Assembly (NCBI GenBank): GCA_021777035.1
Contig: JAIQZR010000164.1
Location: 1 to 64,000 of the forward strand
DNA from: Candidatus Scalindua sp.
GTDB taxonomy: Bacteria; Planctomycetota; Brocadiia; Brocadiales; Scalinduaceae
Direction: 5' to 3'
Length of the DNA stretch: 64,000 bases
Both the position numbers and the translations under genes were made by a program. Below are positions 47,654 to 57,899 of this stretch, one piece after another (position 1 is the first letter of the stretch; each line of letters opens with the position of its first letter). The notes beneath the pieces were generated by a model. It saw only the letters and a program-made list of their open reading frames with translations, was not told the origin of the DNA and made no database searches.

Positions 47654-48077
47654 ATGCCAACGATCAAAAATATTTCAGGGAAATACCGTTTTTTCTTCTG
47701 TAGTTTTGATTGTAATGAGCCGGAACATGTTCATGTTCATGTTCAAAGAGAAAAAATGAATTGTAAATTTTGGTTGGATCCATCAGTGTCCGGTTAGGTT
47801 TTTGCGAGTACGGTTTTTTATGCCCGATCTGTCTGAAGATACGTAGGGCGAGGCTTTAGCCTTGCGCTTAATGTACGAAAGCAAACCTAAAGGATTGCCC
47901 TACGTGATACATGAAAAAACATAACCGGACACTGCTGGGTTGGATCCTGTTACTTTAAGCAATAATCATGGTTTTTCTCCAAAAGAATTAAATGACATAC
48001 GAAAGACTATTGTAAAGGAAAGTGACATAATAATGGAGGCGTGGAATGAGCATTGTGGTAAAAGTTCAAGAGATTAG
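47654..48077 (+). pseudogene. DUF4160 gene split by a MITE-like insertion
   Basis: The left part reads MPTIKNISGKYRFFF and continues to CKFWLD before hitting a stop inside the insertion. The right part resumes as LDPVTLSNNHGFSPKEL and ends EAWNEHCGKSSRD. Together they are a complete DUF4160 protein. Removing the element at 47781-47937 plus one copy of the 9-bp duplication restores KFWLDPVT in frame. DUF4160 genes are usually paired with DUF2442, here overlapping at 48046; the pair resembles a toxin-antitoxin module of unknown mechanism. Confidence 0.88.
47781..47937. mobile_element. 157-bp MITE-like element, copy 1, with 9-bp target duplication
   Basis: The ends are inverted repeats: CATCAGTGTCCGGTTAGG on the left and, read inward from the right, CAGCAGTGTCCGGTTATG. 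The direct repeat GGTTGGATC flanks it at 47772-47780 and 47938-47946. The interior contains CGTAGGGCGAGGCTTTAGCC and no ORF. It must have been moved by a transposase encoded elsewhere. Confidence 0.88.
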
Positions 48078-48315
48078 AATAAAAGAGATAAGCATTAGTG
48101 ACGATACAATATCGGCACATCTTCTCGATGGTAGGACAATCAGTGTTCCACTGGCCTGGTCATGGCGCCTATCAGAAGCTACATCAGAACAAAGATCTGA
48201 TTATCAAATTATTGGCGATGGCCAGTCCATTCATTGGCCTGATATTGATGAAGATTTAAGTGCTGAAGGAATGTTATACGGTATCCCTGCTCCAAGACCA
48301 ACAGTTAGCAAATAA
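48046..48315 (+). CDS. DUF2442 protein
   Basis: An 89-residue protein with the DUF2442 pattern: ISISDDTISAHLLDGRTISV, then PLAWSWRL and HWPDIDEDLSAEGMLYG near the end. GGAGG lies eight bases before the ATG, and the gene overlaps the end of the DUF4160 frame. The insertion in its partner is upstream, so this gene may still be expressed from an outside promoter. Family members are suspected antitoxins or DNA-binding partners; function is not established. Confidence 0.9.
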   Translation: MSIVVKVQEIRIKEISISDDTISAHLLDGRTISVPLAWSWRLSEATSEQRSDYQIIGDGQSIHWPDIDEDLSAEGMLYGIPAPRPTVSK

Positions 48316-57611: not shown

Positions 57612-57705
57612 TTTCAATTCCCAATTAGTTGAACCAAATAATGATTGATCGAGAAACGTTACAAGATGATGGAGAATAGTTTTTTAAAGATTTTGCAAGA
57701 ATAGT

Positions 57706-57889
57706 CATTATCAGCCGGTTAGGTTTTTGTGTGTAACACGTAGGGCAATCCTTCCCGCCCGGCCAAGCCGTTCGGACGGGTAGGTTTGCTTTTGTGCATA
57801 AATGCAAGGCTAAAGCCTCGCCCTACGTCTCTGCTGCCGATTCGGGTATAAAAAAGCCGTACTCGCAAAAACCTAACCGGATGCTACTG
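57706..57889. mobile_element. 184-bp MITE-like element, copy 2, with 9-bp target duplication
   Basis: Inverted ends CATTATCAGCCGGTTAGG (left) and, inward from the right, CAGTAGCATCCGGTTAGG. The direct repeat AAGAATAGT flanks it at 57697-57705 and 57890-57898. It is inverted relative to copy 1: its right part contains GCCGTACTCGCAAAAACC, the reverse complement of copy 1's left end. An internal GC-rich segment (CCCGCCCGGCCAAGCCG) is absent from copy 1. No ORF. Confidence 0.87.
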
Positions 57890-57899
57890 AAGAATAGTA

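What the first reader, a model, noticed from the sequence alone, without database searches (positions are those of the whole stretch)
47654..48077. MITE-like element with exact 9-bp target duplication splits a DUF4160 gene
The element 47781-47937 has inverted ends and is flanked by GGTTGGATC on both sides. Excising it with one duplicate rejoins KFW-LD-PVT in frame and recovers a full DUF4160 protein overlapping its usual partner DUF2442. This is direct evidence for recent transposition and for inactivation of one half of a TA-like pair while the other half stays intact.
Basis: seen in the sequence. Interest (0 to 1): 0.75.

Follow-up and report, generated by a model that had tools for sequence, protein, structure and literature searches.

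The report
Mobile DNA scrap breaks bacterial toxin gene
A 157-base piece of mobile DNA that cannot move by itself, one of about 40 copies in this anammox-type bacterium's genome, has jumped into the toxin gene of a toxin-antitoxin pair and left the antitoxin gene whole; it is a clean example of an ordinary process rather than a new kind of element.

Summary
A 157-bp element (47781-47937) with 9-bp target duplications (GGTTGGATC) splits a DUF4160 gene. About 40 further copies lie in the same genome; 23 of 31 scorable complete copies have 8-9 of 9 matching target bases, against a mean of 0.8 (maximum 5) when flanks are shuffled. Uninterrupted homologues in two related genomes carry the target once and align up to both edges of the insert, so the empty site is shown without reconstruction. 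Full-length 1.3-1.4 kb insertion sequences with the same ends and an IS4-family DDE/YREK transposase exist in sister genomes; one has a 9-bp duplication. The element is therefore a MITE of an IS4-family (IS4Sa-like) insertion sequence; no matching transposase was found in its own assembly. The pair is not merely TA-like: DUF4160/DUF2442 is the tested DhiTA type, with DUF4160 the toxin, so the broken gene is the toxin and the intact one the antitoxin. Nine relatives have the same neighbouring genes but no pair between them, so the pair was probably gained here first. The toxin also carries an in-frame 6-bp repeat expansion. 'Recent' is plausible but undated.

The parts
47781..47937 (.). MITE, 157 bp, ends CATCAGTGTCCGGTTAGGTTTTT / AAAAACATAACCGGACACTGCTG
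   Evidence: inverted arms; about 40 genomic copies; strong hairpin on folding, z = -7.0
47772..47780 (+). left copy of the 9-bp target duplication GGTTGGATC
   Evidence: same length in most other copies
47938..47946 (+). right copy of the 9-bp target duplication GGTTGGATC
47654..47780 (+). 5' piece of the DUF4160 (DhiT-type toxin) gene; its reading frame ends at a TAG inside the element (47797)
   Evidence: Pfam DUF4160 positions 2-32; 91% amino-acid identity to the intact G016 homologue
47938..48077 (+). 3' piece of the DUF4160 gene, without its own usual start
   Evidence: Pfam DUF4160 positions 33-65 (just below the cut-off alone); 74-77% identity to the G016/G021 homologues
47726..47743 (+). 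CATGTT x3 inside the toxin's HxH motif: one 6-bp unit (two residues, HV) more than in all ten intact homologues aligned
   Evidence: 128 versus 122 aligned bases against G016
48046..48315 (+). intact DUF2442 (DhiA-type antitoxin) gene, overlapping the end of the toxin gene by 32 bp
   Evidence: Pfam E=5e-20; 79% identity to G016
47838..47909 (.). inner palindrome ACGTAGGGCGAGGCTTTAGCCTTGC...GCAAACCTAAAGGATTGCCCTACGT (approximate limits), which also occurs on its own, without the MITE ends, in other genomes of the order
57697..57899 (.). second copy of the same MITE family in the window with its 9-bp duplication AAGAATAGT on both sides

Best explanation
A non-autonomous element (MITE), with ends recognised by an IS4-family, IS4Sa-like DDE transposase, transposed into the coding sequence of a DhiT-type (DUF4160) toxin gene. 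The staggered cut duplicated 9 bp (GGTTGGATC). The insert plus one duplicate is 166 bp, so it shifts the frame, and it supplies an in-frame stop (GTG TCC GGT TAG): the toxin is cut to about 43 native residues, losing the second half of its domain. The overlapping DhiA-type (DUF2442) antitoxin remains intact as an orphan. Shown: the insertion, the duplication, the element family, uninterrupted homologues, and IS4-family elements with the same ends in sister genomes. Inferred: that this transposase moved it, that the toxin is inactive and the antitoxin active, and that loss of the toxin rather than the antitoxin reflects selection (a broken antitoxin beside a working toxin would be harmful).
For: Structure and duplication. 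Copies and their duplications. Relatives hold the same MITEs with 9-bp duplications. Full-length IS of 1.32-1.39 kb with the same ends in G003, G005 and G002, the G002 copy flanked by GGTGGGAAT on both sides; G004 holds an IS end identical to the MITE end over AGTGTCCGGTTAGGTTTTTGCG next to the transposase C-terminus at a contig end. Transposase: DDE_Tnp_1 E=4e-19, NCBIfam IS4 family 207 bits against a cut-off of 115, D134/D198/E298 and Y(2)R(3)E(6)K. Gene split. Toxin and antitoxin roles by family: PMC8198452 and PMC12724237. Locus without the pair in nine relatives.
Against: No full or partial copy of this transposase was found in the window's own assembly, although a draft of 204 contigs can lose repeats. 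No empty allele of this very pair at this very locus is known; the uninterrupted copies are homologues elsewhere with 70-79% antitoxin identity. Toxin activity of the intact homologues was not tested. The element differs from its closest copies by 4-6%, so the jump need not be very recent.
Confidence: 0.93

Rival explanations
1. The element is a structured repeat (REP/BIME-like or RNA-coding palindrome) that was not moved by transposition, and the 10-bp repeat at its edges is chance or recombination.
For: It folds into a strong hairpin (z = -7), and its inner palindrome is dispersed across the order without the MITE ends.
Against: Fixed-offset 9-bp duplications in 23 of 31 copies against at most 5 in 10,000 shuffles; IS4-family elements with the same ends; no Rfam match.
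Confidence: 0.03
2. The insertion is neutral: the pair had already lost function (for example through the 6-bp expansion in the toxin's HxH motif), and the MITE landed in a dead gene.
For: The window toxin has an extra HV in a motif that has the same length in all ten intact homologues aligned; the pair is an extra at this locus.
Against: The expansion is in frame, both gene halves are otherwise open, and the antitoxin is intact. The order of the two changes cannot be told.
Confidence: 0.3
3. The split gene still works, as two pieces or as a shortened protein (TTG start at 47940 for the second piece).
For: Both pieces remain open reading frames.
Against: The domain is cut in the middle; the second piece lacks a clear start and ribosome site; no promoter-like site was found inside the element.
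Confidence: 0.04

Closest known systems
IS4 family, subgroup IS4Sa (De Palmenaer et al. 2008, PMC2266710)
   Same: Partner transposase with DDE and Y(2)R(3)E(6)K, a single ORF, element size within 1150-1750 bp, ends beginning CA, duplications of 8-10 bp.
   Different: Subgroup membership was not tested by phylogeny; the D-D spacer is 63 and the D-E spacer 99 residues, the latter at the edge of the published 100-150 range. The window copy itself has no transposase.
Bacterial MITEs mobilised in trans by IS transposases
   Same: Short, non-coding, inverted ends like a full-length IS, target duplications of one length, many dispersed copies mostly between genes.
   Different: Only the ends are shared with the IS; the interior is a palindrome that is dispersed separately in the order, not a deleted transposase gene.
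DhiTA (DUF4160 toxin / DUF2442 antitoxin), Dickeya dadantii; PEM module of Thermus plasmids
   Same: Same domain pair, same order (toxin first), overlapping genes.
   Different: Here the toxin gene is interrupted and the antitoxin is left alone.

Membership tests
MITE | short (< about 400 bp), non-coding, terminal inverted repeats | tested here: met
   157 bp, 31-nt arms 84% complementary, no ORF of its own
MITE | many dispersed copies with target duplications of constant length | tested here: met
   about 40 copies; 9 bp in 23 of 31 scorable copies
MITE | ends shared with an autonomous element that can move it | tested here: met
   ends shared with 1.3-1.4 kb IS in G003, G005, G002 and an IS end in G004; movement itself not tested
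IS4 family (autonomous partner) | DDE transposase with Y(2)R(3)E(6)K | tested here: met
IS4 family (autonomous partner) | duplication of about one helix turn (8-10 bp in IS4Sa) | tested here: met
   9 bp in the G002 IS and in the MITEs; the G003 IS has no matching duplication
IS4 family (autonomous partner) | belongs to subgroup IS4Sa by transposase phylogeny | not tested
   size, CA ends and duplication length agree with the table in PMC2266710; no tree made
DhiTA type II toxin-antitoxin | DUF4160 gene followed by an overlapping DUF2442 gene | tested here: met
   (toxin present in two pieces)
DhiTA type II toxin-antitoxin | first gene toxic, second neutralises | not testable with these tools
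   shown for relatives in PMC8198452 and PMC12724237

The most novel reading that the evidence does not exclude
MITE insertion is a recurrent, selected way in which this lineage disarms newly acquired toxin-antitoxin pairs: the toxin is cut and the antitoxin is kept as an orphan that protects against the same pair arriving again. In G016 a duplicated pair shows a parallel state, a 5'-truncated toxin beside an intact antitoxin.
Probability: 0.12. Interest if true: 0.5.

Novelty: new member of a known kind. Interest (0 to 1): 0.3.

Why it matters
It documents an IS4-family MITE in the Scalindua group of anammox bacteria together with the full-length elements that share its ends, and gives a clear natural knock-out of a DhiT toxin with its antitoxin retained. 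The case makes a simple prediction testable: insertions that fix in toxin-antitoxin pairs should fall in the toxin. Each ingredient is of a known kind.

Tried and rejected
Looked for an autonomous partner in the own genome with DDE_Tnp_1, NF033592 and the sister transposase: only unrelated transposases in ORFs of about 600 aa, without these ends. Several own-genome places with one end sequence proved to be MITEs cut by contig ends, other small elements, or chance matches in genes. No plasmid match, no exact end in viral contigs, no Rfam match, no PADLOC match, no paper holding the end sequence in a relevant context, no held paper on MITEs of anammox bacteria found.

Full report
What is there. 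The element at 47781-47937 is 157 bp, with inverted ends CATCAGTGTCCGGTTAGGTTTTT / AAAAACATAACCGGACACTGCTG, and is flanked by exact 9-bp copies of GGTTGGATC at 47772-47780 and 47938-47946. As a single strand it folds far better than its shuffles (z = -7.0), as expected for a long inverted repeat. The 13-bp end sequence occurs in the window exactly only at these two places.

It is one of a family. The own genome (4.16 Mb, 204 contigs) holds about 40 copies, the best at 93-96% identity, and a second complete one lies in the window at 57706-57890 with duplication AAGAATAGT. Among 31 copies whose two flanks could be scored at one fixed offset, 17 have identical and 23 have at least 8 of 9 matching flank bases; with flanks shuffled among copies the mean number with 8 or more is 0.8 and the largest in 10,000 shuffles is 5. 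Several contig ends fall inside copies. Most copies lie between genes or touch a gene's end by the simple ORF test made here. Related genomes of the same genus carry the same and sister MITEs, again with 9-bp duplications.

What moves it. One related genome (G003) holds a 1318-bp element with ends CAGCATTGTCCGGTTAGGTTTTTGCG... and a 388-aa transposase; G005 and G002 hold relatives with 80-82% identical transposases, and the G002 copy is flanked by GGTGGGAAT on both sides. In G004 an IS end next to the transposase C-terminus, cut by a contig end, matches the MITE end over 22 bases. The transposase is DDE_Tnp_1 and scores 207 bits with NCBIfam's IS4-family model (cut-off 115). It has D134, D198, E298 and the Y(2)R(3)E(6)K motif. 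Size, CA ends, the YREK motif and a 9-bp duplication agree with subgroup IS4Sa in the published table (PMC2266710); a subgroup tree was not made. The own assembly holds no match to this transposase, so mobilisation may have stopped, or the gene may be missing from the draft. Only the ends are shared with the IS; the interior contains a palindrome that occurs by itself across the order.

What it broke. The two flanking pieces match DUF4160 positions 2-32 and 33-65. Genome G016 has an uninterrupted homologue. The window's DNA aligns with it from 47654 to 47781 (84%) and from 47938 to 48299 (83%), the two blocks overlapping on G016 by 10 bases, that is, the target present once; G021 shows the same with 9 bases. 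So the empty site is seen in natural homologues and no reconstruction was needed. Insert plus one duplicate is 166 bp, not a multiple of three, and the end of the element supplies an in-frame stop at 47795-47797. The intact DUF2442 gene (48046-48315) overlaps the toxin gene's end by 32 bp, as in the homologues.

The pair is a known toxin-antitoxin kind. DUF4160/DUF2442 was tested as DhiTA in Dickeya dadantii, where the toxin alone inhibits growth of D. dadantii and E. coli and the pair does not (PMC8198452). In Thermus, plasmids lacking the second gene could not be established, while those lacking the first could (PMC12724237). By family, then, the MITE cut the toxin and left the antitoxin. 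This direction is what selection would tolerate, but a single case cannot show selection. In G016 a second, nearly identical antitoxin gene (97.7% DNA) stands behind a 5'-truncated toxin piece, a parallel state by another route.

History of the locus. Nine related genomes have the same two neighbours (the 807-aa gene upstream and the CBS-domain gene downstream) close together with no trace of the pair between them. The pair was therefore probably gained here, and the MITE came later. Besides the MITE, the toxin carries one extra 6-bp unit (CATGTT x3) in its HxH motif, absent from all ten intact homologues aligned. Whether this came before or after the MITE cannot be told. The genome has five other DUF4160 matches over the cut-off, one of them with an internal stop.

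Host. The genomes of the same genus include one whose contig lengths equal those of 'Candidatus Brocadiaceae bacterium S225', and exact end matches also occur in a Candidatus Scalindua MAG. The window is therefore inferred to come from a Scalindua-type anammox planctomycete (for the lineage).

Verdict. The finding is correct in fact and in interpretation, and the pieces are of known kinds. The additions are the identity of the mobilising family, the identification of the broken half as the toxin, the natural empty sites, and the absence of the pair from the locus in relatives.

Noticed in passing
57697-57899: Second copy of the same MITE family in the window, longer (about 184 bp) because of an extra G+C-rich hairpin in its loop, with exact 9-bp duplication AAGAATAGT.
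   Followed up: yes
47838-47909 and loci L072-L084: The inner palindrome of the MITE (GTAGGGCGAGGCTTTAGCCTTGC...) is dispersed on its own over many genomes of the order, without the MITE ends; the MITE seems to have captured or grown around a separate repeat.
   Followed up: partly
L180 (G016:C45:30500-35000): Duplicated DUF4160/DUF2442 region in which the second copy has an intact antitoxin (97.7% DNA identity) but a 5'-truncated toxin.
   Followed up: partly
47726-47743: CATGTT repeated three times inside the toxin's HxH motif, one unit more than in the intact homologues.
   Followed up: partly
L010, L015, L017, L018: Several MITE copies overlap the 3' ends of ORFs, whose last residues (...VASG, AVSG, ASSG, VASG) and stop are supplied by the element's end.
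   Followed up: no
L085, L090-L099, L103: Other MITE types in relatives with the same ends and 9-bp duplications but a different interior.
   Followed up: partly
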